DNA of 64,000 nt from Streptomyces sp. NBC_00663 (GTDB taxonomy: Bacteria; Actinomycetota; Actinomycetes; Streptomycetales; Streptomycetaceae): the NCBI RefSeq assembly GCF_036226885.1, contig NZ_CP109027.1, forward strand, positions 9,610,001 through 9,674,000, in the 5' to 3' direction. Position numbers and translations under genes: made by a program. Below are positions 4,158 through 18,450 of the stretch, one piece after another. The notes below the pieces were generated by a model. That model did no database searches and was not told the DNA's origin. It was given only the letters and a program-made list of their open reading frames with translations. Position 1 is the first letter of the stretch. Every line of letters starts with the position of its first letter.

Positions 4158-4195
4158 GTGCCGGACTCTAGCATGGCGTCCCACAATGTGGCACG
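4158..4195 (-). promoter_or_regulatory. Conserved putative IclR operator/promoter, copy 1
   Basis: A 38-bp block 76 bp upstream of the first IclR start matches, at most positions, a block at 5162-5199 upstream of the second. It contains the palindrome CCACAATGTGG followed by CAC, and a GTGCC...CTAGCA motif. Conservation in intergenic DNA at the same distance from both starts suggests an operator. It may also reflect recent duplication. Confidence 0.55.
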
Positions 4196-4332: not shown

Positions 4333-5085
4333 TCAGGCTCCCAGGCGGCGCCCCGTGATCTCCGCGGCCGTGTCGGCGACGAGACGGCCCCACTCGGGCA
4401 GCTTGTCCTCGGCGTACCGGGAATCGGGCATGGACATGGCTACGGTGGCCAGCGGTGTGCCGTCCTCGTCGAGGACGGGCGCGGCGATGGCGCAGACGCC
4501 CGGCCGGTACTGGTTGATGTTGACCGCGTAACCGTCCGTGCTGATCCGGCGCAGCTCGGCGCGGAGGTCCGCGGGGTCCGCCGGTGTCGTCTCGCTGTAA
4601 CGCTCCAGCCCCTGGCTGATGAACTCCTCGACCTCCGACTTCGCCAGATGGGCGAGGACGGCGCGCCCGGTGGCGGTCGCGTGCAGGGGTGAGGTGTCGC
4701 CGATGGTGTGGAAGGTCCGTACGGGGTGGTCGCAGTCCACACGGTCCACCACGACCATGCAGTGCAGGGCGTCCGGGACCGACAGGTGAATGGTCTCGTT
4801 CACCTTGTCCCTCAGCCGCACCATCGGCTCGCGGGCGGCGGCGAACAGGCTGGAGCCCTGGAGGGCGGCGGGGCGTACGGCGAGCACGCGTGCGCCGATC
4901 TCCCAGCGGGTGGTGTCCCTGCGGTTCGCCCGCAACCACCCCGCCTCGTTCAGGGTGACCAGGGTGCGCTGCACGGTCGACTTCGGGAGACCGAAGAGCT
5001 TCGTCAGCTCCCCGACGGTCACCGGCTGATGCTGGGCGACCGCCTCCAGGATGCGCAGTGATCTGGTGACGCTCTTCATTTCCAT
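4333..5085 (-). CDS. IclR-family transcriptional regulator (second of a tandem pair)
   Basis: 250 residues. The ATG at 5085 is chosen because it gives the same MEMKSVTRSLR N-terminus as the paralogue and has a GGGGGA ribosome-binding site just upstream; the frame extends further 5' but reads through the promoter. It has an N-terminal winged HTH (LTKLFGLPKSTVQRTLVTL) and a C-terminal IclR effector domain. It diverges from the flavoprotein gene at 5363 and shares the 277-bp intergenic region with it, so it is the most likely direct regulator of the catabolic operon. Differences from its twin cluster in the C-terminal domain, where ligand choice would be made. Confidence 0.93.
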   Translation of the reverse strand: MEMKSVTRSLRILEAVAQHQPVTVGELTKLFGLPKSTVQRTLVTLNEAGWLRANRRDTTRWEIGARVLAVRPAALQGSSLFAAAREPMVRLRDKVNETIHLSVPDALHCMVVVDRVDCDHPVRTFHTIGDTSPLHATATGRAVLAHLAKSEVEEFISQGLERYSETTPADPADLRAELRRISTDGYAVNINQYRPGVCAIAAPVLDEDGTPLATVAMSMPDSRYAEDKLPEWGRLVADTAAEITGRRLGA

Positions 5086-5161: not shown

Positions 5162-5199
5162 GTGCCAGATTCTAGCACAGCGTTCCACAATGTGGCACG
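5162..5199 (-). promoter_or_regulatory. Conserved putative IclR operator/promoter, copy 2
   Basis: It contains GTGCCAGA/TTCTAGCAC and the palindrome CCACAATGTGG, 77 bp upstream of the IclR start, and matches the block at 4158-4195. On the - strand a TAGAAT -10-like element overlaps it, so binding would repress iclR. It sits between the regulator and the divergent flavoprotein gene and could control both. Confidence 0.55.
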
Positions 5200-5362: not shown

Positions 5363-6499
5363 GTGTCAGCTGCCAGGAAGCGCGTCGCCGTCGTCGGCGT
5401 CGGAACGATGGGCAGCCAGGCCGCCTGGCGCCTGGCGGCCCGTGGTGCCGAGGTGGTCGGCTACGACCGCTTCGCCCCGGGCCACGACCGAAGCGCCGCC
5501 GGCGGCGAGACCCGCATCTTCCGCAGCGCCCACTTCGAGGACTCCCGGTACGTCCCGCTCCTCCAGCACGCCGACGCCCTCTGGGAGCAGCTCCAGCAGG
5601 AGACCGGCCGCGAACTGCGCAGCCTCACCGGATGCCTCCTGATGGGGCCCACCGAGCACCACCAGATGGCCACCGTCCTCCAGTCCATCGCCGAGCACGG
5701 CCTGGACCACGAGGTGCTCGACGTGGACGCCCTCGCCAAGCGCTTCCCGCAGTTCCGTATCGAGGACGGTGACGCGGCCGTACTCGACCGCAGGGCCGGC
5801 TTCATCCGCCCGGAACTGACCATCCAGACCGCCGCCCGCCGCGCCGAGGAACTGGGCGCCCGCATCCACCGCTACACCACGGTCCGCGAGATCGTCCCCG
5901 TCGCGAACGGCGTCGCGATCCGCACCGACGCCGGCAGCGAGCACTTCGACGCGGCCGTGGTCAGCCCCGGTCCGTGGGTCAACGACCTGATGCCGGACCT
6001 GCCGTGGGAGGTGGACATCCGTCGGCTGATCAATGCCTGGTACGTGCCCACCACGGACGCCTGGTTCGGCGAGGAGCGTCCGGCCTTCATCCGTACGGCG
6101 CCCACGCACCTGTACGGCCTGCCCTCCCCGGACGGCGTCTCCGTCAAGCTCGGCCTCTCCCGCGCCCTGCACCGCCCCGCCGGCGACCCGAACCAGCTGG
6201 ACCGGACCGTCGAGCCCGAGGAGCTGGAGATCTTCACTGAGCTGATCGGCCGTCACATGCCGGACCTGAACCCCGACCCGACCCGCCTCTCCGTCTATAT
6301 GGAGGGCTACACCGAGAGCAGCCGCCCGCTCGTCGGGCCCCTGCCCGGCGCCGAGAACGTCGTCCTGCTCGCCGGCTTCTCCGGCCACGGTTTCAAGCTC
6401 TCGCCCGCCTTCGGAGACATCGCGGCCGACCTGGCGCTGGACGGCAACTCGGCGCAGCCCATCGACTTCCTGTCCACCCTCGACCGAACGGAGGCGTGA
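5363..6499 (+). CDS. FAD-dependent amine oxidoreductase, sarcosine oxidase / N-methyltryptophan oxidase family
   Basis: 378 residues from the GTG at 5363, which has GAAAGGAAAG upstream; the frame is open further 5' but that part is non-coding in character. It has an N-terminal Rossmann motif VVGVGTMGSQAAW and the family motif RSAAGGETRIFRSAHFEDSRYVPL. The C-terminal flavin-binding segment is AGFSGHGFKLSPAFGD. Members oxidise secondary or N-methyl amino acids with release of an aldehyde and H2O2. The cysteine that binds FAD covalently in monomeric sarcosine oxidase appears replaced by tyrosine in my hand alignment (region SVYMEGYTESSRPLVG). It is the first gene of the transporter/catabolic chain. 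Confidence 0.88.
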   Translation: MSAARKRVAVVGVGTMGSQAAWRLAARGAEVVGYDRFAPGHDRSAAGGETRIFRSAHFEDSRYVPLLQHADALWEQLQQETGRELRSLTGCLLMGPTEHHQMATVLQSIAEHGLDHEVLDVDALAKRFPQFRIEDGDAAVLDRRAGFIRPELTIQTAARRAEELGARIHRYTTVREIVPVANGVAIRTDAGSEHFDAAVVSPGPWVNDLMPDLPWEVDIRRLINAWYVPTTDAWFGEERPAFIRTAPTHLYGLPSPDGVSVKLGLSRALHRPAGDPNQLDRTVEPEELEIFTELIGRHMPDLNPDPTRLSVYMEGYTESSRPLVGPLPGAENVVLLAGFSGHGFKLSPAFGDIAADLALDGNSAQPIDFLSTLDRTEA

Positions 6500-6504
6500 C
6501 GACC

Positions 6505-7503
6505 ATGACCTCGACGAAGAGCTCCCTGTCCGTCGGCGCCCTGAGCGCCGAGCCCGGCACCAAGGTCCGCGGCACTGTCTCCGCCGACCTGGGCACGCTC
6601 ACTGTGGACATCCCGCTGACCCTGGTCAACGGCGCCCACCCCGGCCCCCGCGTCCTCGTCACGGCAGGCGTGCACGGCGGCGAGTTCACCGGCATCGACG
6701 CGGCCACCCGGCTCGCGGCCCTGCTGGAACCCGGCGAGGTGCACGGCCAGGTCGTCCTGTGCCCGGTCGCCAACCCGCCGGCCGTGTACCAGGGGCGGCT
6801 CGGCGTCTCCCCGCTCGACGGTGTCAACATCAACCGCGTCTTCCCCGGCGACCCGGACGGCGGCCCCACCGAGCGGCTGGCCGCCTGGCTCTTCGCTCAC
6901 CTCGTCGAAGGCGCCGACGCCTACGTCGACCTGCACTCCGGCGGCATCGACGAGGTCCTCAAGGACTTCGTCGGCTACCGCCTCACCGGCGACCCCGAAC
7001 TCGACGGCAGGACGGCCGACACGGCCGGCGCCCTCGGCATCGACGACGTCATCTTCGGCATGAACACCGACGGCGGCAACAGCCACGCGGCCGCCGCCCG
7101 ACAGGGCATCCCGGCGATCCTCGTCGAGACCGGCCAGCTGGGCGAGCGCGACCCGGAGGCCGCCCGGCGGCTCGTCGGCGGCCTGTACGGGGTACTGAAC
7201 CGGCTCGGAGTCCTCGACACACGGCCCCAGGGCCCCGGGTCGCCGGTCCGCGAGTGGGTCTGGGCCGCGGGCGTCACCGCCGAGAACAGCGGCCTCTGGT
7301 ACCCGGAGTTCACCGCCGGCGACGACGTGACGTCCGGCCAGGTCATCGGCCACGTCATCGACCCGGCCGACGGCCAGGAATACAAGGTCCACACCCCCGC
7401 CACCGGACGCATCTTCTACGGAATGCGCGGCCTCACCGTCGCCCCCGGCGCCGAACTGGCAGCCATCGCCGCTCCGGCTCCCCGGATCTCCGGCGACCAC
7501 TGA
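6505..7503 (+). CDS. Succinylglutamate desuccinylase / aspartoacylase (AstE/DoeB-like) zinc deacylase
   Basis: 332 residues. The ATG at 6505 is preferred over the GTG at 6496 because GGAGG at 6490-6494 sits 10 nt before it. Zinc-carboxypeptidase fold: the metal ligands are visible as AGVHGGEF (His, Glu) and DLHSGG (His), with NINRVFPGDPDG between them. A C-terminal beta-sandwich/lipoyl-like extension is present, as in AstE and ectoine-pathway DoeB. Such enzymes hydrolyse an N-acyl group from an amino acid. A distant paralogue lies at 13058. It starts 5 nt after the flavoprotein stop, so the two are co-transcribed. Confidence 0.85.
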   Translation: MTSTKSSLSVGALSAEPGTKVRGTVSADLGTLTVDIPLTLVNGAHPGPRVLVTAGVHGGEFTGIDAATRLAALLEPGEVHGQVVLCPVANPPAVYQGRLGVSPLDGVNINRVFPGDPDGGPTERLAAWLFAHLVEGADAYVDLHSGGIDEVLKDFVGYRLTGDPELDGRTADTAGALGIDDVIFGMNTDGGNSHAAAARQGIPAILVETGQLGERDPEAARRLVGGLYGVLNRLGVLDTRPQGPGSPVREWVWAAGVTAENSGLWYPEFTAGDDVTSGQVIGHVIDPADGQEYKVHTPATGRIFYGMRGLTVAPGAELAAIAAPAPRISGDH

Positions 7504-7609
7504 ACCCACCCCCTGCAAAGCCCCCGCACGACCAGAACGAGAAACCGCTCCAGCCCGCACCCCCCACACGCATCCCCTCCCCTCGTAACGCACCACCAGG
7601 AGGCACCCG

Positions 7610-8713
7610 GTGAAGGACTTTCGGATCGACCGCAGAGTGTTTCTGCGCGGAGCAGGCGGCGTTGCCGCAGGCATCGCCGCCGCCACGTCCCTCAGCGCCT
7701 GCGGCACCGGCACCAGCCGGTCCGGCAGCAGCGGCGGCAAGGGCTCCAAGACGCTCGTCGTGCGCAACAGCGGCGGCTCCTACGGCGACGCCAACCAGCA
7801 GGCGATCTACGAGCCGTTCACCAAGGAGACCGGCATCCAGGTCAAGGTGGTGAACATCGAGTACGCCCAGATGCTCGCCCAGATCAAGCAGGGCCGCCCT
7901 CAGTTCGACGTCATCGACGACTCGATGGCCGACTTCGTCCTCTTCAAGCAGCAGGACGCGACCGAGGACCTCGACTTCGACCGGCTGAAGAACTTCAAGA
8001 GCGCGGGCATCGCCAAGACCCTGGTCACCTCCAACGCTGTCGGCAAGAACTACTGGGCCAGCGTGATGGCCTACCGCACCGACTCCTTCGGCAAGCAGAA
8101 ACCTTCCTCCTGGGCCGACTTCTGGGACACCAAGGCGTTCCCCGGCAACCGCGCCCTCCAGGCCCTGGACGCCGATCTGCCCGAGCTGGAGTTCGCCCTC
8201 CTCGCCGACGGCGTGGCCCTGGACAAGCTCTACCCCCTCGACGTGGACCGCGCCTTCAAGGTCCTGAGCGAGATCAAGCCCCACGTCCGCAAGTTCTGGG
8301 ACACCGGCGCCCTGCCCGGAGTGCTCCTGGGCCGCAAGGAGGTCGACGCCTCCAGCGTCTGGCACGGCCGCCTGGACGCCCTGATCAAGGGCGGCGCCCC
8401 GCTCGCCTATCAGTGGAACGGCGCCCGCCGGCAGAGCAACGCCCTCGGCATCCCCAAGGGCGCCGCGAACGTCGACGCCGCCTACCAGCTCATCGACTTC
8501 GCGCTGCGCCCCGAGGTGCAGGCCGCCTACGCCGAGATCTATCCGATGGCCCCGTCGGTGCCCGGCGCCTACAAGAAGCTCTCCACCACCACCGCCGCGA
8601 ATCTGGGCAGTTCCCCGAAGCACCTGGAGACCGGCTTCGACCTGGACGTCGAATGGTGGATCAAGAACCAGGACGCCGTGTCCAAGCGCTGGCAGGAGTG
8701 GACGCATGCCTGA
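7610..8713 (+). CDS. PotD-like ABC transporter substrate-binding lipoprotein
   Basis: 367 residues from a GTG with AGGAGG 5 nt upstream. The signal is a Tat type (RRVFLRGAGG) ending in a lipobox (LSAC), so the mature protein is a lipid-anchored extracellular receptor. The fold is that of spermidine/putrescine-type family 1 binding proteins (LVVRNSGGSYGDANQQAIYEP in two parts near the start; PKGAANVDAAYQLIDFALRPE near the end). Overlaps by 8 nt with the ATPase gene that follows. The ligand is probably a polyamine or other cationic or zwitterionic nitrogen compound. Confidence 0.9.
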   Translation: MKDFRIDRRVFLRGAGGVAAGIAAATSLSACGTGTSRSGSSGGKGSKTLVVRNSGGSYGDANQQAIYEPFTKETGIQVKVVNIEYAQMLAQIKQGRPQFDVIDDSMADFVLFKQQDATEDLDFDRLKNFKSAGIAKTLVTSNAVGKNYWASVMAYRTDSFGKQKPSSWADFWDTKAFPGNRALQALDADLPELEFALLADGVALDKLYPLDVDRAFKVLSEIKPHVRKFWDTGALPGVLLGRKEVDASSVWHGRLDALIKGGAPLAYQWNGARRQSNALGIPKGAANVDAAYQLIDFALRPEVQAAYAEIYPMAPSVPGAYKKLSTTTAANLGSSPKHLETGFDLDVEWWIKNQDAVSKRWQEWTHA

Positions 8714-9839
8714 GATCGACGTGATGCCCTCGCTCACTCGGCCGGAGACCCTGGCCGGTAGCGGAAAACCCTTGTCCATAACACGACTTCGCAAGACCTA
8801 CGGGGGCGTCACCGCAGTCGACGAGGTCTCCATGGAGATCGCTGCGGGTGAGTTCGTCACCTTCCTCGGCTCCTCCGGCTCCGGCAAGACCACCACCCTC
8901 ATGATGATCGCCGGGTTCTGCGAGCCCGATTCCGGCAGCATCGTCGTCGGTGGCAACGACGTCACCCGCCTCGCCCCGCAGAAGCGCGGCCTGGGCTTCG
9001 TCTTCCAGCAGTACCTGCTCTTCCCGCACATGACGGTGTGGGAGAACGTGGCCTTCCCGCTGCAACTGCGCGGCGTGCCGAAGGCGGAGCTGCGCCGCCG
9101 GGTCGGCGAGACCCTGGAGATGGCCGGACTGTCCGCCATGGCCCGGCGCCGCCCGCGCGAACTGTCCGGCGGCCAGCAGCAACGCGTCGCCCTGTGCCGG
9201 GCCCTGGTCTACCGCCCGCCGGTCATCCTCATGGACGAGCCCCTCGGCGCCCTCGACAAGAAGCTGCGCGACCAGCTCCAGACCGAGATCAAGCGCATCC
9301 AGCAGGAACTCGGCCTGACCGTCATCTATGTGACGCACGATCAGGAGGAAGCCCTGGTCCTGTCCGACCGGATCGCGGTGATGCGGGACGGCCTGATCGA
9401 CCAGTTCGACACCCCGCAGGAACTGTTTGAGCGGCCCCGCACTCCGTTCGTCGCCGACTTCCTCGGCGCGGCCAACTTCCTCCCGGGCCGCGTGGAGCAG
9501 CAGACCTCCGCCCACACCCTCGTCCGGCTCGACAGCGGCGGCGCGCTGAAGGCGCGTCCGCAGGTCGGTTCCGAGGGGGTTCGGGTCCGCGCGGCGGTCC
9601 AGCCCGGCCGGCTCGCCCTGTGTCCGCCGGGCGACGGGTTCTGTACGGGGACCGTCGAGACGGTCACCTACGTCGGCACCCTGGTCCGCGTCACCGTCCG
9701 CCCCCTCGGCGGCACGGACACCGCACTCATACGACTCGAACTGCCCGCCGGCCGCGCCCCCGCCCTCGGCGAGCGGGTCGACCTGGCCGCGGACCCCGCC
9801 AACGTCAGCGTCTTTCCCGACGCGGAAGACGAGAGGTGA
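8706..9839 (+). CDS. PotA-like ABC transporter ATP-binding protein
   Basis: 377 residues. Walker A GSSGSGKTT, Q-loop FVFQQYLLFPHMTV, signature LSGGQQQRV, Walker B VILMDEPLGALD and H-loop VTHDQEEA are all present. A C-terminal TOBE domain (about residues 280-370) is typical of the spermidine/putrescine and Fe3+ importer class. It energises uptake with the two permeases that follow. The start overlaps the binding-protein gene. Confidence 0.94.
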   Translation: MPEIDVMPSLTRPETLAGSGKPLSITRLRKTYGGVTAVDEVSMEIAAGEFVTFLGSSGSGKTTTLMMIAGFCEPDSGSIVVGGNDVTRLAPQKRGLGFVFQQYLLFPHMTVWENVAFPLQLRGVPKAELRRRVGETLEMAGLSAMARRRPRELSGGQQQRVALCRALVYRPPVILMDEPLGALDKKLRDQLQTEIKRIQQELGLTVIYVTHDQEEALVLSDRIAVMRDGLIDQFDTPQELFERPRTPFVADFLGAANFLPGRVEQQTSAHTLVRLDSGGALKARPQVGSEGVRVRAAVQPGRLALCPPGDGFCTGTVETVTYVGTLVRVTVRPLGGTDTALIRLELPAGRAPALGERVDLAADPANVSVFPDAEDER

Positions 9840-9844
9840 GGACA

Positions 9845-10768
9845 GTGGCCGTACTCGCTCCGGTATCGGGCTCCGCCACTCCGGCGCCCCAGAAGAAACG
9901 ACGGGGCCGCGTCTCACTGTCCGACCGCCGCACCCGCTTCGGCCTGATCAACGCGACCCCCGTCGTCGTCTACCTGCTGATCCTCTTCGTCTATCCCATC
10001 TTCAGCACCCTGATGCTGAGCCTGAAGGGCGACAACGGCGGTCTGACCCTCCACTGGTACGCGGACGCGTTCCAGGGCGCCAACCTGGAGATCCTGCTCA
10101 CCACCCTGCGGATCTCCGCCGAGACCTCCCTGCTCGCCCTGGTCATCGGCTTCCTGCTGGCCTCCGCGATCTCCCGGCTCAAGCCCCTGTGGGCGGGCCT
10201 GGCGATGATCGTGGTGGTCGTCCCCCACTTCATCAGCGCCCTGGTGCGCACCTACGGCTGGATCATCCTGCTCGGCGACAACGGCGTGGTGAACAACGTC
10301 CTGACGGACATCCACTTCCCGGGCGCGCCCTTCCAGTTGCTCTACAACGAGATCGGCGTCGTCATCGGCACCACCGCCGTGATGCTGCCGTACACCGTGC
10401 TGCTGCTGTACGCGGTGATGAAGGGCATCGACAGGCGGCTGCTGGCCGCCGCGGCGAGCATGGGCGCCGGACGGATCACCATCTTCCGCCGGGTCTACGT
10501 CCCCCTGGTGGCCCCCGGCCTGGTCAACGCCGGCGTGTTGTCCTTCATCCTCTGCCTGGGCTACTACCTCACCCCCGCCCTCATGGGCGGCGAGAAGCAG
10601 ACCATGGTCGCCTCCCTCATCGACGAACAGGTCATGAAGCAGAACCAGTGGAACGGCGCCTCGGCGCTCGGCATCATCCTGCTGCTCCTCACCTTCGCCG
10701 GACTGCTGCTGCTCAGGCTGCTGAAGTCGGCCGGCGAGGCCCTTCGGAACCGGGGGACGGCATCATGA
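9845..10768 (+). CDS. PotB-like ABC transporter permease
   Basis: 307 residues from the GTG at 9845 (GAGGTGAGGA upstream); longer in-frame extensions run into the ATPase gene. It has about six membrane segments, beginning TPVVVYLLILFVYPIF. The cytoplasmic EAA loop reads AAASMGAGRITIFRRVYVPL, which docks onto the ATPase. It overlaps the next permease by 4 nt. Confidence 0.92.
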   Translation: MAVLAPVSGSATPAPQKKRRGRVSLSDRRTRFGLINATPVVVYLLILFVYPIFSTLMLSLKGDNGGLTLHWYADAFQGANLEILLTTLRISAETSLLALVIGFLLASAISRLKPLWAGLAMIVVVVPHFISALVRTYGWIILLGDNGVVNNVLTDIHFPGAPFQLLYNEIGVVIGTTAVMLPYTVLLLYAVMKGIDRRLLAAAASMGAGRITIFRRVYVPLVAPGLVNAGVLSFILCLGYYLTPALMGGEKQTMVASLIDEQVMKQNQWNGASALGIILLLLTFAGLLLLRLLKSAGEALRNRGTAS

Positions 10769-11634
10769 TCGAGCTCCGTTCCACCCTGGCCGGGCGCATC
10801 ACGCTGGCTGTGTTCTCCACGCTCATCCTGCTGTTCCTGGCGATGCCGATCGTCGTCATCGTCGTCACCTCCTTCGGCAAGGACGCCTTCGGCTCCTTCC
10901 CGCCGGACTCCTGGACGCTCGGCTGGTACAAGCAGCTGTTCGCCGACGGCAGCAAGTGGCCCGCCGCGCTGTCGCTCAGCGCCCTGGTCGCGGCGATGAC
11001 CACGGTCTTCTCGCTGGTCCTGGGCATGACCGCTGCGACGGCCCTGGTCCGCAGCGAACTGCCGCTGCGCTCGGCGGTCTACGGTCTGGTCCTGGCCCCT
11101 CTGGTGATTCCCCAAGTGGTCATCGCCCTCGGCCTGTTCCTGCTCTTCGAGCCCGCCTCGATGCTCGGCAGTCCGATCGCCATCGCCCTCGGACACACCG
11201 TGCTGGCCTCACCGATCGCCGTGATGATCCTCATGGCCACGCTGAAGGGCATCGACGAACGCCTGGAGGACGCGGCGGCCAGCATGGGCGCGAACCGCTT
11301 CACCATCGCCCGCCGCATCACCCTCCCGCTGGCCATGCCCGGCCTGGTCGCCGCCGGGATCTTTGCCTTCATCACCAGCTTCGACGAGTTCTTCATCTCG
11401 CAGTTCCTGTCCTCCGTGGACACCACGACCCTGCCGGTCCAGGTGTTCAACGTCCTTCAGTACAACGTCGACCCGTCGGTGACCGCCGTCAGCGCGATCC
11501 TCATCGCGGTCGCCGTCGTGGCCCTGGCAATGGTCGGCGTCGTGCGCAAGCTCAGCGGCTCCGGCAAGCAGGACGGCCTGCTGCCCACAGAACCCGGAGT
11601 GGGGCTCCCCGCCGGAAGTGAGACCGCATCATGA
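10765..11634 (+). CDS. PotC-like ABC transporter permease
   Basis: 289 residues with about six membrane helices (first LAVFSTLILLFLAMPIVVIV) and the EAA loop DAAASMGANRFTIARRITLP. It is the second permease of the importer. The ATGA overlaps at both ends show it is part of a tightly coupled operon with the binding protein, ATPase and aminotransferase. Confidence 0.92.
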   Translation: MIELRSTLAGRITLAVFSTLILLFLAMPIVVIVVTSFGKDAFGSFPPDSWTLGWYKQLFADGSKWPAALSLSALVAAMTTVFSLVLGMTAATALVRSELPLRSAVYGLVLAPLVIPQVVIALGLFLLFEPASMLGSPIAIALGHTVLASPIAVMILMATLKGIDERLEDAAASMGANRFTIARRITLPLAMPGLVAAGIFAFITSFDEFFISQFLSSVDTTTLPVQVFNVLQYNVDPSVTAVSAILIAVAVVALAMVGVVRKLSGSGKQDGLLPTEPGVGLPAGSETAS

Positions 11635-13019
11635 CCACCACCAGCACCCCCGCCGACGAGTTGTCCGCCACCGCGGCCCGACACCTCCTGCTCAACATGA
11701 CCCCCAACGGTTCGCTCGGGCAGGACGGCGAGAACCTCTTCGTCGTCCAGCGCGGGGAGGGCCCGTACATCGACGACGCGGACGGCAAGCGCTACATCGA
11801 CGGCCTGTCCGGCCTCTACTGCTGCCAGATCGGCTACTCCTACGCCCCCGAGTTCGCCGAGGCCGCCGACAAGCAGCTGCGCGAACTGTGCTTCAGCCCG
11901 TTGTGGTCCGGGTCCGCGCACCCCACGGCGATCGAACTCGCCGAGCGGCTCTCACGGATCGCGCCCGTCGACATCGAGCACACCTTCTTCTCCGGCGGCG
12001 GCGCCGAGGCCGTCGAGACCGCCTGGAAGATCGCCCGCCGCTACCACGCCCTGTGCGGGGAACCGGGCCGGGTCAAGGCGATCTCCCGCCGTGGCGCCTA
12101 CCACGGCCTGACCATCGGTGCCCTCTCCCTCACCGACGACCCCGGGCTGCGCGAGCCCTACGGCCCCGGCGCGATCGATACCCGTTTCGTGTCCAACACC
12201 AACCGCTTCGGACTCGCCCCCGAGTTCGCCGACGACGACGTGTACGCGACCCATCTGCTCGCCGAGCTGGAGGCCGCGATCCTGGCCGAGGGCCCGGAGA
12301 CGATCGCCATGCTGATCGCCGAGCCGGTGCAGAACCGGGGCGGCTGCATCACCCCGCCCCGGGGCTACTGGCCGGGCCTGCGGGCGCTGGCCGACCGGTA
12401 CGGCTTCCTCCTCGTCGCCGACGAGGTCATCACCGCGTTCGGGCGGCTGGGGGAGTGGTTCGGCGGCGACCTGTACGGCGCCCGCCCCGACATGGTCACC
12501 GTCGCCAAGGGCATCACCGCCGGCTACGCCCCCATGGGCGCCACCCTGGTCAGCAACCGGATCACCGAGGTCATCAACCGGCCCGGCACGGTCCTCAACC
12601 ACGGCTACACCTTCGCCGGACACCCGCTCAGTGCCGCGATCGCCCTGCGCAGCCTGGAGATCATGGAGCGGGACCGGATCCTGGAGAACGTCCGCGGCCA
12701 GCAGGACCACCTGGCCCAGCGCATGGCCTCCCTCGCGGACCTGCCGATCGTCGGCGACGTCCGCGGTGCCGGATTCTTCTACGCCTGCGAACTCGTCGGT
12801 GACCTTGACGGCGGCGGCTTCAGCGACACCGTCCGGGCCGAGCTGATCGCCGACCTGATCCCGCGCCGCCTGCGCGAGGCCGGCCTGCTGGCCCGCGTCT
12901 ACAACCGCGCCGCCCCCCTGGTGCAGATCGCGCCCCCGCTGATCAGCGACCGCCACCTGCTCGACCGTATCGCCGACATCCTCGCCCAGACCCTCCACGA
13001 GGCGTCCCACCGCCTCTGA
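11631..13019 (+). CDS. Class III pyridoxal-phosphate aminotransferase (omega-amino acid/amine:pyruvate type)
   Basis: 462 residues. The PLP lysine lies in VTVAKGITAGYAPMGA. The fold-type I acidic motif is VADEVITAFGRLGEWFG, and the glycine-rich phosphate site is FFSGGGAEAVETAWK. It would move the terminal amino group of a diamine or omega-amino acid to pyruvate or 2-oxoglutarate, leaving an aldehyde for the dehydrogenase at 14008. It is coupled to the importer (4-nt overlap), which suggests that the imported compound or its deacylated product is the substrate. Class III enzymes are hard to assign to one amine. Confidence 0.9.
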   Translation: MTTTSTPADELSATAARHLLLNMTPNGSLGQDGENLFVVQRGEGPYIDDADGKRYIDGLSGLYCCQIGYSYAPEFAEAADKQLRELCFSPLWSGSAHPTAIELAERLSRIAPVDIEHTFFSGGGAEAVETAWKIARRYHALCGEPGRVKAISRRGAYHGLTIGALSLTDDPGLREPYGPGAIDTRFVSNTNRFGLAPEFADDDVYATHLLAELEAAILAEGPETIAMLIAEPVQNRGGCITPPRGYWPGLRALADRYGFLLVADEVITAFGRLGEWFGGDLYGARPDMVTVAKGITAGYAPMGATLVSNRITEVINRPGTVLNHGYTFAGHPLSAAIALRSLEIMERDRILENVRGQQDHLAQRMASLADLPIVGDVRGAGFFYACELVGDLDGGGFSDTVRAELIADLIPRRLREAGLLARVYNRAAPLVQIAPPLISDRHLLDRIADILAQTLHEASHRL

Positions 13020-13057
13020 TCCACGCCCGTGAACCCGCTTTCGAAAGGAACCCCCTG

Positions 13058-14011
13058 ATGTATTCCATCGGTCCGCTGACCGTCGCCCCCGGCGAGCGAG
13101 CCCAGGGCCTCATCCCGGTCGGCACCAGCAGCTACGGCGTGGAACTCGGCATCCCGCTGATCGTCGTCAACGGCGCCGAGCCCGGCCCGGTGCTCTGCGT
13201 GGACGCAGGCGTGCACGGCGACGAGTACGACGGCCAGGAGTCCATCCGCCGCGTCCTCGCCGAGATCGACCCGGCCACCCTGCGCGGCACCCTCGTCGGC
13301 ATCCCCTGCATGAACACCCCCGCCTTCGAGGCGGCGGCCCGCACCAGCGGCCTGGACTACCTCAACCTCAACCGGATCTTCCCCGGTGACGCGGACGGCT
13401 CGTACTCCCTGCGCCTCGCGGCCACCTTCGTCGAGCAGGTCGTCCCGGCCATCGACGCCCTCGTCGACCTGCACACCGGCGGCACCTTCGGCGAGATCGC
13501 CCCGCTCGTCATCCTCCAGGGCGGCTACGAGGAACTCGCCACCGACCTCGCCCTCGCGGCCGGTCACGACCTGGTCTGGAAGGGCGGCAAGTGGGGCGGC
13601 ACGGTCCGCCACCCCACCCTCGCGGCCGGCAAGCCCGCCATCACCATCGAGGCGGGCGGCGGCACCTACCGCGAGGCCAACGTCGAACTGCACATCAAGT
13701 CGATCCGCAACATCATGCGCCAACTCGGCATGACCGACGGCGAGGCCGAACTGCGCGACAGCTACACCACGGTCTCCGGCACCTTCGCCCGCTCCGACTC
13801 CGGCGGCTTCTTCCTCGGACACGCCGAGCCGGGCGAGACCTGCAAGGAAGGCGACCTGATCGCCCACATCGTCGACCACTACGGCAACATCCTTGAGGAG
13901 GTCCGCGCCCCGCAGGACGGCACCGTGCTCTGGGTCCGCCGGATCCGTACCGTGCGGCCGGGCGACGAGGTCGTCATCTTCGGCGAGGTGCTGGGGGAGA
14001 TCCGGCCATGA
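13058..14011 (+). CDS. Second succinylglutamate desuccinylase / aspartoacylase family deacylase
   Basis: 317 residues, with GAAAGGAA before the ATG. Zinc-site motifs are DAGVHGDEYDG (His, Glu) and DLHTGG (His), with NLNRIFPGDADG between. Later residues TIEAGGGTYREANVE would contribute the catalytic glutamate. It shares the layout of the product at 6505 but is clearly divergent, so two different acyl substrates or two steps are likely. Nearest functional models are ectoine-pathway DoeB/EutE and AstE. Overlaps the next dehydrogenase by 4 nt. Confidence 0.85.
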   Translation: MYSIGPLTVAPGERAQGLIPVGTSSYGVELGIPLIVVNGAEPGPVLCVDAGVHGDEYDGQESIRRVLAEIDPATLRGTLVGIPCMNTPAFEAAARTSGLDYLNLNRIFPGDADGSYSLRLAATFVEQVVPAIDALVDLHTGGTFGEIAPLVILQGGYEELATDLALAAGHDLVWKGGKWGGTVRHPTLAAGKPAITIEAGGGTYREANVELHIKSIRNIMRQLGMTDGEAELRDSYTTVSGTFARSDSGGFFLGHAEPGETCKEGDLIAHIVDHYGNILEEVRAPQDGTVLWVRRIRTVRPGDEVVIFGEVLGEIRP

Positions 14012-15462
14012 GCGGTGACACGCAGTTGCTCCTCGTCGACGGCAAGCAGGTCCCGGCCGCCGACGGCCGCACCTTCACCGTCCTCGACCCTTCGGACGGC
14101 ACGCCCCTCGCCCGGGTGGCGCTGGCCGGCCAGGCGGACGTGGACCAGGCGGTGGCGGCGGCCCGGGCGGCCTTCACCTCGCCCGAGTGGGCACGGATGC
14201 GCGCCGCCGACCGGGGCAGGATCCTGTACCGGATCGCCGAGGCGATCCGGTACCAGGGGGAGCGTCTGGCCCGCCTGGAGAGCCAGGACGTCGGCAAGCC
14301 GCTCCGCCAGGCCAAGGCCGACGTCGAGGGCGCCGCCCGCTACTTCGAGTTCTACGCCGGCATCGCCGACAAGCTCGGCGGCACGACCATCCCCCTCGGC
14401 CCCGGTCTGGTCGACTACACCGTCCGTGAGCCGATCGGCGTCTCCGGCCAGATCATCCCGTTCAACTACCCGTTGCAGAACACCGCGAGGGGTTCCGCCC
14501 CCGCGCTGGCGGCAGGCTGCACGGTGGTGCTCAAGCCCTCCCCGGAGGCACCGCTGACCCCGCTGGAGATCGGCAGGATCGCCCTCGAATGCGGTCTTCC
14601 GGCGGGTGTGCTGAACATCGTCCCCGGTGACGCGGAGACGGGTGCGGCCCTGGCCGGTCACCCGGACATCGACCAGGTCACCTTCACCGGTTCGGTGCCG
14701 ACCGGCATCAAGGTCGCCCAGGCGGCCGCCGCCAACGTGGTGCCGTCCGTGACGGAGTTGGGGGGCAAGTCGCCGTTCGTCGTCTTCGCCGACGCCGACT
14801 TCGACCTGGCACTGAACGCCGTCCTCGGCTGGTCCTTCAGCAACGCCGGCCAGATGTGCTCGGCCGGCACGAGGCTGCTGCTCCAGCGCGGTGCCGAGGA
14901 CTTCCTGGACCGGCTGGTCGAGAAGATCGCCACCCTGCGCATCGGTCCCGGTCTGACGGACCCGGACATCGGCCCGCTCGTCGCCGCCCGGCAACGCGAC
15001 CGGGTTCTGGGCTACCTGGACCTGGCCCGGCAGGAGGGCGCCGTCGCACGGGTCGGTGGCGGCGCTCCCTCCGCCCCAGAGCTGGCCGACGGCTACTACA
15101 TCGAGCCGACCGTCCTCACCGGCCTGACGAACCAGGCCCGTTGCGCCCGCGAGGAGATCTTCGGCCCCGTCGTCACCGTCATCGAGTTCGACGACGCCGA
15201 CGAGGCCCTTCAGATCGCCAACGACAGCCCGTACGGCCTCGCTTCCTACGTCTGGACCCGCGACATCGACAAGGCGATGACCCTGGCCGGCGGTATCCGG
15301 GCCGGCCAGGTCTACGTCAACGTCACCGGCGCGGGGACCGGCATCGAACTCCCCTTCGGCGGCTACAAGCACAGCGGCTGGGGCCGGGAGAAGGGCCTGG
15401 AAGCCCTGGCCGGCTACACGCAGACCAAGAACGTCTGCATCGGATTCGGGGACCGGTCATGA
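14008..15462 (+). CDS. NAD-dependent aldehyde dehydrogenase (betaine/aminoaldehyde dehydrogenase type)
   Basis: 484 residues. Motifs: IIPFNYPL, FTGSVPTG, general base TELGGKSPFVVF, catalytic cysteine in SNAGQMCSAGTR, and the C-terminal ELPFGGYKHSGWGREKG. Residue choice around these motifs is closest to betaine-aldehyde/aminoaldehyde dehydrogenases. It probably oxidises the aldehyde formed by the aminotransferase or the flavin oxidases of this cluster. It is overlapped at both ends by neighbours in the same operon. Confidence 0.9.
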   Translation: MSGDTQLLLVDGKQVPAADGRTFTVLDPSDGTPLARVALAGQADVDQAVAAARAAFTSPEWARMRAADRGRILYRIAEAIRYQGERLARLESQDVGKPLRQAKADVEGAARYFEFYAGIADKLGGTTIPLGPGLVDYTVREPIGVSGQIIPFNYPLQNTARGSAPALAAGCTVVLKPSPEAPLTPLEIGRIALECGLPAGVLNIVPGDAETGAALAGHPDIDQVTFTGSVPTGIKVAQAAAANVVPSVTELGGKSPFVVFADADFDLALNAVLGWSFSNAGQMCSAGTRLLLQRGAEDFLDRLVEKIATLRIGPGLTDPDIGPLVAARQRDRVLGYLDLARQEGAVARVGGGAPSAPELADGYYIEPTVLTGLTNQARCAREEIFGPVVTVIEFDDADEALQIANDSPYGLASYVWTRDIDKAMTLAGGIRAGQVYVNVTGAGTGIELPFGGYKHSGWGREKGLEALAGYTQTKNVCIGFGDRS

Positions 15463-16397
15463 GATACCGCACCCTCGGTGAGCGCGGACCGACCGTCTCC
15501 GTCGTCGGCGTCGGCGGCAACAACTTCGGCTCCCGCCTCGACGAGGAGGGCACGAAAGCCGTCGTGCACGCGGCCCTCGACGCCGGGATCACCCTGTTCG
15601 ACACGGCTGACATGTACGGCGGCTTCGGCGAACAGGGCGGGACGCGCGGCGATGGGGAACGGCTCCTCGGAGCCGCCCTCAAGGGCCACCGCGACGAGGT
15701 CGTGCTGGCCACCAAGTTCGGCATGGAGATGGGTCCGGAGGCCGACCAGTACGGCAGGCGCGGTGCCCGTGCCTACATCCGGTACGCCGTGGAGGCGTCC
15801 CTGCGCCGCCTGGGCACCGACCGGATCGACCTGTTCCAGTACCACGAGCCGGACGGCGCCACGCCGCTGGACGAAACGATCGCCGCTCTGCGGGAACTGA
15901 TGGACGAGGGGAAGATCGGCCACATCGGCTGCTCCGACCTCCCGCCCGAGGACCTGTCCGACGCCTTCGTGTCGACCCAGGCCCGCTACCACCTGCTCGA
16001 CCGCAGCGTGGAAGCCGACCTGATCCCGGCCTGCCTGCACCACGGCATCGGCCTGCTCCCGTACTACCCGCTCGCCAACGGCCTGCTCAGCGGCAAGTAC
16101 CGGCGCGGCGAGCAGCCACCCGCCGGCAGCCGCCTGTCCTGGCGGCAGGGCTGGCTCACCGACGCAGCCCTCGACCGAGTCGAAGCCCTCACCGCGTACG
16201 GCGCCGAACGCGGCCTGACGCTCCTTCAGGTCGCCGTCGGCGGCCTGGCCGCCCTCCCCGCCGTCGGCTCCGTGATCTGCGGCGCCATGACCCCCGAACA
16301 GGTCACCGCCAACGCGGCGGCGGCCGACTGGATCCCCGACGCGGCCGACCTGGCCGCCCTGGACGCGATCGTCACTCCGGGCGAGCGGATCGTCTGA
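15459..16397 (+). CDS. Aldo/keto reductase
   Basis: 312 residues starting MRYRTLGERG at the ATG that overlaps the upstream stop. AKR signatures: GITLFDTADMYGG (catalytic Asp and Tyr), VLATKFGM (Lys) and FQYHEPD (His), then an NADPH-site C-terminus (GSVICGAMTPEQV). It would reduce an aldehyde or ketone, perhaps as a side branch or detoxification step. No specific substrate can be named. Confidence 0.9.
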   Translation: MRYRTLGERGPTVSVVGVGGNNFGSRLDEEGTKAVVHAALDAGITLFDTADMYGGFGEQGGTRGDGERLLGAALKGHRDEVVLATKFGMEMGPEADQYGRRGARAYIRYAVEASLRRLGTDRIDLFQYHEPDGATPLDETIAALRELMDEGKIGHIGCSDLPPEDLSDAFVSTQARYHLLDRSVEADLIPACLHHGIGLLPYYPLANGLLSGKYRRGEQPPAGSRLSWRQGWLTDAALDRVEALTAYGAERGLTLLQVAVGGLAALPAVGSVICGAMTPEQVTANAAAADWIPDAADLAALDAIVTPGERIV

Positions 16398-16442
16398 TGT
16401 GCCCCGCCCCCCTGTAAGAACCGGAAACCGAGGTTGAACCCC

Positions 16443-17108
16443 ATGCGAGAGATCGTCACCTTCGACGCCTACGCCACCCTCATCAACTTTCAGCTCGGCC
16501 CCACCACCCTGAAGGTCCTGGAAGACCGGCTGGACCTGGACAACCTGGACGTCGACGAGTTCCTCGACGACTTCCGCGTTATGCGCTTCCAGGCCGTCCT
16601 GGAGGCCTACCGCCCCTACCACGAGGTCCTGCACTCCAGCCTGCGCAACGCCATGCGTCTGCACGGCCTGGAGTACCGCACGTCCGACGGCGACGCCCTC
16701 GTCGACGCCGTCCCCACCTTCGGCCCCTTCCCGGAGGTCCCGGACGCCCTGCGCGCGTTGAAGTCGCGCTACGAGATCGCGATCATCTCCAACACGGACG
16801 ACAACATGATCGCGCGGAACGTCGAGAACATCGGCGTCGAGTTCGACTACGTCATCACCGCCCAGCAGGCCGGCGCCTACAAGCCCGACCGCCAGACCTT
16901 CGAGCACGCCTTCAAGACCATGGGCGTCGAGCCCTCGCAGGTGATCCACACGGCCCAGGGCTGGGAGTACGACCACATCCCCACCCGTGACCTCGGCCTG
17001 AAGCGCCGGGTGTGGATCAACCGCTACGGCCGCAAGGGCAGCGCCGACTACCAGCCCTACGACGAGCTGCCCGACCTGTCGGGCCTGCCGAAGCTGCTCG
17101 GCTGCTGA
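16443..17108 (+). CDS. HAD hydrolase, L-2-haloacid dehalogenase-like (type II)
   Basis: 221 residues from the ATG at 16443 (GAGG 9 nt upstream); a TTG at 16434 is in frame but lacks spacing for a ribosome-binding site. HAD motif I is TFDAYATLIN, motif II IISNTDDN, and the motif III lysine lies in AGAYKPDRQTFEHA. A helical cap lies between about residues 15 and 95. Many proteins of this type act on phosphorylated or halogenated small acids. A role in this operon is not evident. Confidence 0.85.
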   Translation: MREIVTFDAYATLINFQLGPTTLKVLEDRLDLDNLDVDEFLDDFRVMRFQAVLEAYRPYHEVLHSSLRNAMRLHGLEYRTSDGDALVDAVPTFGPFPEVPDALRALKSRYEIAIISNTDDNMIARNVENIGVEFDYVITAQQAGAYKPDRQTFEHAFKTMGVEPSQVIHTAQGWEYDHIPTRDLGLKRRVWINRYGRKGSADYQPYDELPDLSGLPKLLGC

Positions 17109-17157
17109 CCGGCCGGGACCCCCAGCACACAGAGACAGAACACAGAGGACGCACCTC

Positions 17158-18450
17158 ATGAAGCAGATCCCCTACTGGCTCGACACCGCCCCCGCCCTGC
17201 CCGACCGTTCCGGCAAGGCGCTGCCCGACGAGGCGGACGTGGTGGTCATCGGCGGCGGCCTCACCGGTCTGTCCACCGCCTACCACGCCGCCCGCAAGGG
17301 CGCCCGGGTCGTCCTCGTCGAGAAGGACAAGGTCGGCTCGGGCGCCTCGGGGCGCAACGGCAGCATGTGCACCCAGGGCATCACCATCGGCACGGGCGAG
17401 GCCCGAAAGCGCTTCGGGCAGGAGCGCGCCCGTGAGTTGTACGGCGCGTTCCGCGAGGCGGTCGACGTCGTCGAGGAGCTGACCCACACCGAGAAGATCG
17501 ACTGCGACTTCCACCGTGCCGGCCGTCTCGGTGTGGCGTACAAGCCGCAGCACTTCGAGTCGATGAAGGCCACCCAGCGCGACCTGGCCGACAACTTCGG
17601 CCACGAGACCCAGCTCCTGAGCCGCAGTGAGCTGAAGTCGGAACTGGGCTCGGACTACTACCACGGCGCCCTGCTCGACCCGCTGAGTGCCGCCCTGCAT
17701 GTGGGCAAGTACGTCCACGGTCTGGCGGAGGCCGCCGAACGCGCCGGCGCCGAGATCCACGAACGCAACGCCGCCACCGGCCTCACCCGCCTGCCGGGCG
17801 GCGGGTTCGACGTGGAGACCCTGCACGGCACGATCCGCGCCAAGCAGGTCATGGCCGCCACCGACGCCTACACCGACAAGGCGCTGCCCTGGTTCCGCAA
17901 GCGGCTGATCAACGTGGGCAGCTTCATCATCGTCACGGAGCCTCTCGGTGAGGCGCGGGCCCGCGAACTGATCCCCAATGGCCGCCTGGTGGTCGACTCC
18001 AAGAACATCGGCCACTACCTCCGCCTCACCCCGGACAACCGCCTCGCCTTCGGCGGCCGCGCCCGCTTCGCCCCCTCCAACCCGGCCTCCGACGTCAAGA
18101 GCGGCGACATCCTGAAGCGGGAGATGACGGAGATCTTCCCGCAGTTGGCGGGCGTCCGCGTCGACTACGTGTGGGGCGGCATGGTCGGCTTCTCCTGGGA
18201 CCGCCTCCCGCACGCCGGCGAGGCAGAGGGGGCCAAGGGCCTGTACTACTCCATGGGGTACTGCGGCCACGGGGTCCAGATGGCCACGTACATGGGCCGC
18301 GCGGTCGCCGAGATGATGGACGGCAAGCCGGAGGCCAACCCCCTGCGCGGCCTCGGCTTCCCCAAGGTCCCCGTCCCCTTCTACAACGGCACCCCCTGGT
18401 TCCTGCCCTTCGGCGGCGCCTACTACAAGGCCAAGGACAAGCTGCACTGA
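17158..18450 (+). CDS. FAD-dependent amine/amino-acid oxidoreductase (DadA/PuuB-like)
   Basis: 430 residues. N-terminal dinucleotide site VVVIGGGLTGLSTAYHAA, then VGSGASGRNGSM, as in gamma-glutamylputrescine oxidase and D-amino-acid dehydrogenases. The C-terminal flavin contact is YYSMGYCGHGVQMATYMGR. It would oxidise a secondary or primary amine to an imine/aldehyde. It is the last intact gene of the catabolic chain and has GGACGCACCTC before its ATG. With the MSOX-like gene at 5363 the cluster encodes two different flavin amine oxidases. Confidence 0.88.
   Translation: MKQIPYWLDTAPALPDRSGKALPDEADVVVIGGGLTGLSTAYHAARKGARVVLVEKDKVGSGASGRNGSMCTQGITIGTGEARKRFGQERARELYGAFREAVDVVEELTHTEKIDCDFHRAGRLGVAYKPQHFESMKATQRDLADNFGHETQLLSRSELKSELGSDYYHGALLDPLSAALHVGKYVHGLAEAAERAGAEIHERNAATGLTRLPGGGFDVETLHGTIRAKQVMAATDAYTDKALPWFRKRLINVGSFIIVTEPLGEARARELIPNGRLVVDSKNIGHYLRLTPDNRLAFGGRARFAPSNPASDVKSGDILKREMTEIFPQLAGVRVDYVWGGMVGFSWDRLPHAGEAEGAKGLYYSMGYCGHGVQMATYMGRAVAEMMDGKPEANPLRGLGFPKVPVPFYNGTPWFLPFGGAYYKAKDKLH

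What the first reader, a model, noticed from the sequence alone, without database searches (positions are those of the whole stretch)
5363..18450. Catabolic supercluster with two different AstE/DoeB-like deacylases and two flavin amine oxidases
The sequence shows an ordered set: importer, two divergent zinc deacylases, class III aminotransferase, two aldehyde dehydrogenases (one at 1575), two flavin oxidoreductases, aldo/keto reductase and HAD hydrolase. Ectoine degradation uses a DoeB-type deacetylase, an aminotransferase and a semialdehyde dehydrogenase. The M24-type ectoine hydrolase (DoeA/EutD) is not in the window, and the importer is PotABCD-like. By inference this is a pathway for an N-acylated diamine, N-methylated amino acid or similar compatible solute that has not been assigned.
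Basis: partly seen in the sequence, partly recalled or inferred. Interest (0 to 1): 0.65.

Follow-up and report, generated by a model that had tools for sequence, protein, structure and literature searches.

The report
Streptomyces catabolic module, GABA-like substrate
A set of about 18 neighbouring genes, inherited largely together in roughly one in eleven sampled genomes of its (probably Streptomyces) genus, looks like a machine for importing and breaking down a modified relative of the small amino acid GABA; it is not the ectoine pathway it resembles, and its exact food molecule is still unknown.

Summary
In detail: a tight 12-gene run at 5363-18450 with two divergent AstE/DoeB-like zinc deacylases, two DAO-fold flavin oxidases, ABC importer, class-III aminotransferase, ALDH, AKR and HAD. 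The unit is larger (about 21-23 kb): ALDH1, tandem IclR regulators and, upstream of base 1, a GABA-transaminase-like gene, a FAD/Fe-S D-2-hydroxyacid-dehydrogenase-like gene and a PucR regulator. It ends sharply in two compared genomes. Of 34 other genomes of the genus with the SolA oxidase, 33 carry AstE2, 33 the HAD, 31 the dehydrogenase; AstE2 is in 0 of 20 genomes listed without SolA. Ectoine is rejected: no DoeA passes in the genome (73 of 613 bits) and neither deacylase is DoeB. The binding protein resembles GABA/opine binders more than polyamine binders; it keeps the GABA-site Arg but, in all 11 deacylase-bearing loci examined and neither of 2 deacylase-less ones, lacks the Asp that holds the free amine. 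The back end (GABA-AT-like, SSADH-like, D-2-hydroxyacid dehydrogenase; HAD whose nearest solved relative is azetidine-2-carboxylate hydrolase) suits an N-substituted GABA or alpha-hydroxy-GABA compound. The substrate is unproven. New variant of a known kind.

The parts
1..1578 (+). 3' part of a 1000-aa FAD/Fe-S D-2-hydroxyacid-dehydrogenase-like protein (YdiJ-like; starts upstream, in L009 from about 18576). Upstream of it, outside the window: GABA-AT-like aminotransferase AT' (L009 17437-18705, +) and PucR regulator (L009 15526-17211, -)
1575..3014 (+). ALDH1, SSADH-like semialdehyde dehydrogenase, operon with the dehydrogenase
   Evidence: TIGR01780 574 vs 646 bits; 69.7% identical in Rhodococcus JS3073
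3333..4082 (-). IclR-type regulator 1
4158..4193 (.). degenerate copy of the operator-like pair upstream of IclR1 (3 and 1 mismatches)
4333..5085 (-). IclR-type regulator 2, tandem paralogue of regulator 1
   Evidence: start and length; 2 copies in G009, G027, L038-L041, L047
5162..5197 (.). operator-like palindromes GTGCCAGATTCTAGCAC (5162-5178) and TTCCACAATGTGGCA (5183-5197)
   Evidence: first invariant in 7, second in 6 of 7 aligned genomes; first exact in 9 of 17 sequences scanned
5363..6499 (+). SolA-type flavin oxidase (MSOX/N-methyltryptophan oxidase family)
   Evidence: (308.6 vs 257 bits)
6496..7503 (+). AstE1, zinc deacylase
7610..8713 (+). substrate-binding protein, closest to GABA/opine binders
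8706..9839 (+). ABC ATPase
9842..10768 (+). ABC permease 1 (start uncertain)
10768..11634 (+). ABC permease 2
11631..13019 (+). AT, class-III omega-aminotransferase (missing in G027)
13058..14011 (+). AstE2, zinc deacylase
14008..15462 (+). ALDH2, BADH/aminobutyraldehyde-type aldehyde dehydrogenase
15459..16397 (+). aldo/keto reductase
16443..17108 (+). HAD type II hydrolase
17158..18450 (+). DAO2, PuuB/AmaA-like flavin oxidase (PuuB likeness recalled; AmaA model 195 of 600 bits)

Best explanation
This is a patchily distributed, probably horizontally spread catabolic module, probably under IclR and PucR control, for an N-substituted GABA-type (C4 omega-amino acid) compound. Shown by sequence: gene content, synteny, co-inheritance, family membership and kept catalytic residues. 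Inferred: (1) the GABA/opine-type ABC importer takes up a carboxylate whose amine is substituted; (2) AstE1/AstE2 remove acyl groups and SolA/DAO2 oxidatively cleave C-N bonds, the released aldehydes or amines going to AT/ALDH2/AKR; (3) the freed GABA-like core (GABA or 4-amino-2-hydroxybutyrate) is transaminated by AT' to a C4 semialdehyde and oxidised by ALDH1 to a C4 dicarboxylate; (4) the HAD, an Asp-nucleophile hydrolase of the haloacid-dehalogenase/azetidine-2-carboxylate-hydrolase group, makes an (R)-2-hydroxy acid, which is why a D-2-hydroxyacid dehydrogenase travels with it (for example D-malate to oxaloacetate).
For: Synteny with sharp edges over 21-23 kb in two other genomes, one of another genus; gene order as far as AKR, where the 10-kb flank ends, in S. 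canus, S. sporangiiformans and S. griseus WC-3645, and to the contig ends in Micromonospora KC213 and Lentzea indica. Co-inheritance: of 34 other genomes of the genus with SolA at 79% or more, AstE2 in 33 (one in two pieces), HAD in 33, dehydrogenase at 81% or more in 31 (one partial, one with a stop inside), also where unlinked (G654 713 kb, G813 226 kb, G665 other contig). Of 20 genomes listed without SolA at E <= 1e-80: AstE2 in 0, dehydrogenase at 80% or more in 0 (best 68%). SBP: named-ligand PDB neighbours bind GABA, mannopine, agropine; W202 and R205 of the GABA site kept in 13 of 13 SBPs; D228, which bonds the GABA amine (PMC12999171, passages), is N/Q/S in 11 of 11 AstE-bearing loci and D in the 2 AstE-less ones. 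AT' keeps GabT I50, R141, E211, K268, R398. ALDH1 is SSADH-like. SolA keeps MSOX R49, R52, K265, K348. Both window AstE keep the zinc ligands and the N-R motif. HAD: nearest solved protein by sequence and by Foldseek E-value is azetidine-2-carboxylate hydrolase; a homologue, 8hp7, is titled as trapped with (2R)-4-amino-2-hydroxybutanoic acid.
Against: No substrate or product is shown. The HAD is 32% identical to azetidine-2-carboxylate hydrolase, while HADs of other bacteria without assigned function reach 39-40%; cis-epoxysuccinate hydrolase and a Pyrococcus HAD are almost equal by E-value and several reach higher TM-scores, 0.85 vs 0.81. Neighbourhoods of three related HADs (Roseomonas, A. 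vitis, S. meliloti) show no amine oxidase. None of the models shown for ALDH1, AT' or the dehydrogenase passes its NCBIfam cut-off (dehydrogenase 447 vs 1350 bits in G009). SolA lacks MSOX His45, His269 and the FAD-linking Cys315. The two best PDB matches of the SBP have no named ligand, 4eq7 is labelled 'Polyamine' by its depositors, and the best NCBIfam family is PotD (59.8 of 582 bits). The SBP pattern rests on few independent lineages. The AT'-dehydrogenase-ALDH1 operon shows none of the IclR palindromes, lies elsewhere in some genomes, and PucR is outside the block shared with G009, so it might serve another pathway. AT is absent from G027. AstE2 of Lentzea indica lacks the N-R motif in the alignment. 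DAO2, AKR and the second deacylase have no firm place in the scheme.
Confidence: 0.45

Rival explanations
1. Patchwork: two or three independent pathways side by side, e.g. SolA-AstE1 dealkylation, AT-AstE2-ALDH2 deacylation and an AT'-dehydrogenase-ALDH1 GABA/2-hydroxyacid operon.
For: Separate regulator next to AT' and no IclR palindromes there; the sub-operon is unlinked in some genomes; a SolA2-AstE1' pair occurs beside a DUF1537-type kinase and a PdxA gene in S. griseus WC-3645; G864 has AstE2/HAD 5.9 Mb from SolA.
Against: Near-complete co-inheritance even when unlinked and absence in the 20 genomes listed without SolA.
Confidence: 0.2
2. N-acylpolyamine route (e.g. N-acetylputrescine): AT or DAO2 to the aldehyde, ALDH2 to N-acyl-GABA, AstE to GABA, AT' and ALDH1 to succinate.
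For: Enzyme kinds fit in order; solved relatives of AT include putrescine and polyamine:pyruvate transaminases; PotABCD architecture, and PotD is the best NCBIfam family of the SBP though at 59.8 of 582 bits.
Against: SBP scores 139-149 bits to GABA binders and at most 73 to putrescine/spermidine binders, and keeps the GABA-site Arg; it leaves SolA, HAD and the D-2-hydroxyacid dehydrogenase unexplained.
Confidence: 0.12
3. Opine or Amadori-compound catabolism: the oxidases split a sugar- or keto-acid-derived N-substituted amino acid.
For: SBP is close to mannopine- and agropine-binding proteins; SolA keeps carboxylate-binding residues; a DUF1537-type kinase lies beside related SolA genes in S. 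griseus (family search) and, by sequence resemblance only, in Arthrobacter.
Against: No sugar-phosphate gene was recognised in the window module; deacylases and D-2-hydroxyacid dehydrogenase are unexplained.
Confidence: 0.13
4. Ectoine/hydroxyectoine degradation (DoeABCD/EutABCDE).
For: AT, AstE2 and ALDH2 are the same enzyme kinds as DoeD, DoeB and DoeC; against an annotated doe cluster of Paracoccus they show 36, 30 and 39% identity, and ALDH1 46% over the part held.
Against: No DoeA over cut-off in the genome (73 vs 613 bits); deacylases at 110 and 83 vs 402.7 and outside the DoeB clade; no gene of EutB or EutC kind recognised in the module.
Confidence: 0.02

Closest known systems
Ectoine degradation cluster doeA-B-C-D / eutABCDE
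   Same: DoeB-type zinc deacylase, class-III aminotransferase and semialdehyde dehydrogenase kinds together (annotated example)
   Different: No DoeA/EutD in the genome, no EutB or EutC in the module; two deacylases outside the DoeB clade; GABA/opine-type importer; flavin oxidases, HAD and D-2-hydroxyacid dehydrogenase added
GABA shunt genes gabT-gabD with GABA/opine-type ABC importers
   Same: GabT-like AT' with kept active-site residues, SSADH-like ALDH1, SBP near GABA/mannopine binders
   Different: SBP amine-site Asp replaced; front-end deacylases and oxidases; FAD/Fe-S D-2-hydroxyacid-dehydrogenase-like gene inside the operon
L-azetidine-2-carboxylate hydrolase (Pseudomonas A2C; AzhA of Aspergillus nidulans) feeding GABA metabolism
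   Same: HAD type II hydrolase, the nearest solved structure; a GABA-transaminase step follows in A. nidulans (PMC8016842)
   Different: Only 32% identity; I found no described cluster of this make-up
Puu / Spu polyamine catabolism
   Same: PuuB-like flavin oxidase, aldehyde dehydrogenase, GABA-AT and SSADH kinds
   Different: No gamma-glutamyl ligase or hydrolase recognised in the module; binding protein closer to GABA/opine binders

Membership tests
Ectoine degradation (doe/eut) | ectoine hydrolase DoeA/EutD present | tested here: not met
   TIGR02993 best 73 of 613 bits in the whole genome; gene 11 kb past the window 45.6 bits
Ectoine degradation (doe/eut) | deacetylase DoeB over model cut-off / in the DoeB clade | tested here: not met
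   110 and 83 of 402.7 bits; both outside the DoeB clade
AstE/AspA/DoeB zinc deacylases (superfamily) | zinc ligands H..E and H, catalytic Glu, N-R carboxylate motif | tested here: met
   both window proteins; roles of the motifs recalled
Monomeric sarcosine oxidase / N-methyltryptophan oxidase | carboxylate-site Arg52/Lys348 and Lys265 | tested here: met
   R54, K345, K262; NF008425 308.6 vs 257 bits; residue roles recalled
Monomeric sarcosine oxidase / N-methyltryptophan oxidase | covalent-FAD Cys315 | tested here: not met
   Tyr in its place, His45 and His269 also replaced; position may shift by local alignment
GABA transaminase | GabT residues I50, R141, E211, K268, R398 | tested here: met
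   residue list recalled
GABA transaminase | NCBIfam equivalog score | tested here: not met
   TIGR00700 346 vs 507 bits
Succinate-semialdehyde dehydrogenase | NCBIfam TIGR01780 score | tested here: not met
   574 vs 646 bits
GABA-type solute-binding protein | GABA site W202, R205, D228 | tested here: inconclusive
   W and R kept, D replaced by N
Polyamine (PotD) binding protein | closest to polyamine binders | tested here: not met
   73.3 bits at most vs 191.5 for 4i1d and 139-149 for GABA binders; NCBIfam PotD 59.8 of 582
L-azetidine-2-carboxylate hydrolase | orthologue-level identity (AzhA is 44.5% to the Pseudomonas enzyme, PMC8016842) | tested here: not met
   32%
L-azetidine-2-carboxylate hydrolase | activity on azetidine-2-carboxylate | not testable with these tools
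   needs enzyme assay
HAD type II (haloacid dehalogenase group) | model score and nucleophile Asp, Thr, Lys | tested here: met
   TIGR01428 129.5 vs 125.4 bits; D8, T12, K147 invariant in 12 sequences
D-2-hydroxyglutarate dehydrogenase YdiJ | NCBIfam equivalog score | tested here: not met
   447 vs 1350 bits for the G009 orthologue

The most novel reading that the evidence does not exclude
The module is a dedicated bacterial pathway for plant compounds built on azetidine-2-carboxylate: the free toxin, its N-acetyl form made by fungi, or nicotianamine/mugineic-acid phytosiderophores. Deacylases and flavin oxidases free azetidine-2-carboxylate; the HAD opens the ring to (2R)-4-amino-2-hydroxybutyrate; AT' and ALDH1 turn it into D-malate; the FAD/Fe-S enzyme oxidises that to oxaloacetate. 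My paper searches showed no complete gene set described for such compounds.
Probability: 0.15. Interest if true: 0.75.

Novelty: new variant of a known kind. Interest (0 to 1): 0.42.

Why it matters
If the GABA-type reading is right, a defined set of genes and an operator-like sequence give a direct route to the substrate of a module whose SolA gene is carried by 34 of 391 other genomes of the genus sampled, and an example of an importer losing its amine-binding residue where deacylases are present. If the azetidine reading is right, it would give genes for microbial breakdown of a plant toxin or of phytosiderophores.

Tried and rejected
Ectoine: rejected at sequence level. Polyamine import: rejected as the simple reading after the SBP comparison. 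HAD as a true orthologue of azetidine-2-carboxylate hydrolase: rejected. HAD fold search: did not discriminate between azetidine hydrolase, epoxysuccinate hydrolase and haloacid dehalogenase. Aminophosphonate catabolism: considered because DAO2 and the ATPase hit such models (TIGR03329 187.6 of 632.8; TIGR03265 339.8 of 457.7); both are below cut-off. Homarine/trigonelline: paper searches gave nothing I could use. Neighbourhoods of distant AstE, SBP, HAD, SolA and DAO2 relatives on plasmids were too varied to name a substrate. My early impression that the module is very rare (close AstE2 in 2 of 149 other genomes of the family sample; in a phylum sample of 396 genomes G009 was the only close match besides the window's own genome) was corrected by the genus sample.

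Control caveats: of the 34 control genomes (G534-G556) are listed without a SolA match at E <= 1e-80; the other 14 were taken from genomes already shown to lack AstE2, so I do not count them (none of the 14 has the dehydrogenase at 80% or more either). One search had no positive control in it; the same query rang in 33 of 34 genomes. One search included G009 as positive control (100%). All carriers and controls are from one genus, so they are not independent draws. SBP count: 13 loci used; L040 (contig ends) and L045/L048 (no such SBP found) were dropped.

Not in print: searches listed no description of this cluster; the library is open-access only and I saw listings, not all the papers. Papers: PMC8016842 abstract and passages; PMC12999171 passages; PMC11113362 passages (not used in the argument); all others search listings only.

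Full report
What is there. The window is bases 9,610,001-9,674,000 of a 9.86-Mb contig. Between 5363 and 18450 twelve genes lie on the + strand with gaps from -8 to +106 nt, four junctions being 4-nt overlaps: SolA-type flavin oxidase, AstE1, substrate-binding protein, ATPase, two permeases, class-III aminotransferase (AT), AstE2, ALDH2, aldo/keto reductase, HAD type II hydrolase, DAO2 flavin oxidase. Two points were missed. The space between 4082 and 5363 holds a second IclR gene (4333-5085), a tandem paralogue of the first. And the open frame at base 1 is the end of a FAD/Fe-S dehydrogenase, 1000 aa from its first GTG, related to D-2-hydroxyglutarate dehydrogenase YdiJ but far below that model's cut-off (447 vs 1350 bits for the G009 orthologue), preceded by a GABA-transaminase-like gene (AT') and a divergent PucR regulator.

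A unit with edges. Comparison with G009 (same genus) and G027 (another genus of the family) gives one collinear block from 2.8 kb (G009) or 4.5 kb (G027) before base 1 to about base 18,510, at 83-89% nucleotide identity, with no blastn hit over 250 bases outside it in the stretches compared; PucR is outside the part shared with G009, and AT is missing in G027. The same order, as far as AKR where the flank ends, appears in S. canus, S. sporangiiformans and S. griseus NRRL WC-3645, and, as far as contigs or flanks reach, in S. dysideae, Streptomyces sp. GESEQ-4, Micromonospora sp. KC213 and Lentzea indica (the last two with one IclR). Rhodococcus sp. JS3073 (plasmid) and Amycolatopsis marina carry a smaller version in which no AstE relative was found: SolA, SBP, permeases, ATPase, HAD and the dehydrogenase (in JS3073 also AT', AT and ALDH1).

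Co-inheritance. In 392 genomes of the genus, 34 besides the window's own carry SolA at 79% identity or more. Of these 34, AstE2 is in 33 (one as two pieces), the HAD in 33 and the dehydrogenase at 81% or more in 31, one of them partial and one with a stop inside. Within 20 kb of SolA on the same contig lie AstE2 in 28, HAD in 28 and the dehydrogenase in 25; in G654, G813 and G665 the dehydrogenase is present but 713 kb away, 226 kb away or on another contig, and in G864 AstE2 and HAD are 5.9 Mb from SolA. Of the 20 genomes listed without SolA, AstE2 is in none, and none has the dehydrogenase at 80% or more (best 68%). The genomes are related, so these are not independent events, but presence while unlinked argues for shared function.

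Regulation. Upstream of SolA lie two palindromes whose starts are 21 bases apart, GTGCCAGATTCTAGCAC (14 of 17 positions self-complementary) and TTCCACAATGTGGCA; the first is invariant in seven aligned genomes, the second in six of the seven. The first is exact in 9 of 17 sequences scanned; a degenerate pair lies before IclR1; approximate pairs (1 to 3 mismatches) also lie before the second SolA gene of S. lanatus and S. griseus; none with up to 3 mismatches was found in the 20 kb upstream of base 1 that hold AT' and PucR. So the long operon is probably IclR-controlled and the AT' operon probably PucR-controlled (inference).

Not ectoine. No ectoine hydrolase passes in the genome (best 73 of 613 bits). 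An M24 gene 11 kb past the window scores 45.6. The two AstE genes are the only DoeB-model matches and score 110 and 83 of 402.7. In a tree with the DoeB of an annotated doe cluster of Paracoccus, AstE1 and AstE2 form two separate clades outside DoeB; both window proteins keep the zinc ligands, the catalytic Glu and the N-R motif, while the AstE2 of Lentzea indica lacks the N-R motif in the alignment (motif roles recalled).

The importer. The binding protein is nearest in the PDB to 4i1d and 3rpw (ligands not named in the output), then the Pseudomonas GABA-binding protein Pf622, 4eq7 (labelled 'Polyamine' by its depositors; that it is the GABA binder Atu4243 is recalled), and mannopine and agropine binders; putrescine/spermidine binders score 73 bits or less, PotD 58.7. 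In NCBIfam its best family is nevertheless PotD, at 59.8 of 582 bits. The GABA site of Pf622 is W9, T13, F100, Y102, W202, R205, D228, Y264, with D228 bonded to the GABA amine (PMC12999171, passages). Among 13 loci, W202 and R205 are kept in all. D228 is N, Q or S in the 11 loci with AstE1 and D in the two without; Y264 is M, S or A in the 11 and Y in the two. I read this as import of a GABA-like carboxylate with a masked amine where deacylases exist, and with a free amine where they do not. This is an inference from few lineages.

The enzymes. AT' keeps the GabT residues I50, R141, E211, K268 and R398 (list recalled) and ALDH1 is SSADH-like (574 vs 646 bits). SolA keeps the carboxylate-site residues of monomeric sarcosine oxidase but not His45, His269 or the Cys that binds FAD (roles recalled). 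The HAD's nearest solved relative is L-azetidine-2-carboxylate hydrolase by sequence (97 bits) and by Foldseek E-value (model pLDDT 91.8; rank 1, but cis-epoxysuccinate hydrolase and a Pyrococcus HAD are nearly equal, and several others have higher TM-scores, 0.85 vs 0.81). Identity to azetidine hydrolase is 32%, below HADs of Roseomonas, A. vitis and R. opacus at 39-40%, so it is not filed as that enzyme. One homologue structure, 8hp7, is titled as trapped with (2R)-4-amino-2-hydroxybutanoic acid. A 2R product would explain why a D-2-hydroxyacid dehydrogenase, a GABA-transaminase and a semialdehyde dehydrogenase travel with the HAD: the chain would end in D-malate and oxaloacetate. HAD genes next to amine-oxidase-type genes recur in Arthrobacter, R. 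opacus, Gemmobacter, G233 and in a second SolA-HAD pair of G009; three other HAD neighbourhoods show none (Roseomonas, A. vitis, S. meliloti).

How it most likely works. Uptake of an N-substituted GABA-type acid; removal of acyl groups by AstE1/AstE2 and of alkyl substituents by SolA/DAO2; ALDH2, AT and the AKR handle released aldehydes or amines; AT' and ALDH1 finish the C4 core; HAD and the FAD/Fe-S enzyme handle a 2-hydroxy branch. Only the gene content, conservation and residue patterns are shown; every reaction is inferred. In a Pseudomonas azetidine-2-carboxylate is hydrolysed to 2-hydroxy-4-aminobutyrate and transaminated, in A. nidulans its use needs GABA transaminase, and fungi also N-acetylate the toxin (PMC8016842, abstract and passages); this makes an azetidine-based substrate the boldest reading not excluded (0.15).

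Verdict. A real, co-inherited, so far unassigned catabolic module made of known enzyme families: a new variant of a known kind.

Noticed in passing
L045 6729-12127; L042 6737-13368; L044 9175-12130: A second SolA (70% identical) plus AstE1-like gene. In S. griseus WC-3645 (L045) it sits beside a DUF1537-type kinase, a PdxA-family gene and a frame without Pfam match, with approximate IclR palindromes, on the same contig as the main module; S. lanatus (L044) also has both on one contig. In L042 the neighbours were recognised by sequence resemblance only.
   Followed up: partly
L023 13971-29944 (Cytobacillus oceanisediminis plasmid): Five AstE-like deacylases within 16 kb, interleaved with ABC transporter genes; a two-copy version lies on a 16.6-kb plasmid of Pukyongiella typed as mobilizable (L022).
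   Followed up: no
L146-L147 (G233:C1:1119001-1159000): Four HAD type II genes within 34 kb, among flavin oxidases, class-III aminotransferases and ALDHs; SolA there overlaps an isocitrate/isopropylmalate-dehydrogenase-like frame (named from its sequence, not from a family search).
   Followed up: partly
G009:C1:6525917-6527802: A third SolA-like gene (62%) is followed about 0.2 kb later by a HAD (32%), away from the main module.
   Followed up: no
window 18724-20250: GH5 cellulase with CBM2 immediately downstream of the module, on the other strand, outside the conserved block.
   Followed up: no
L048 13340-15216 (Lentzea alba): The module's usual binding protein was not found here; a different, SBP_bac_3-type importer lies between AstE1 and AstE2.
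   Followed up: no
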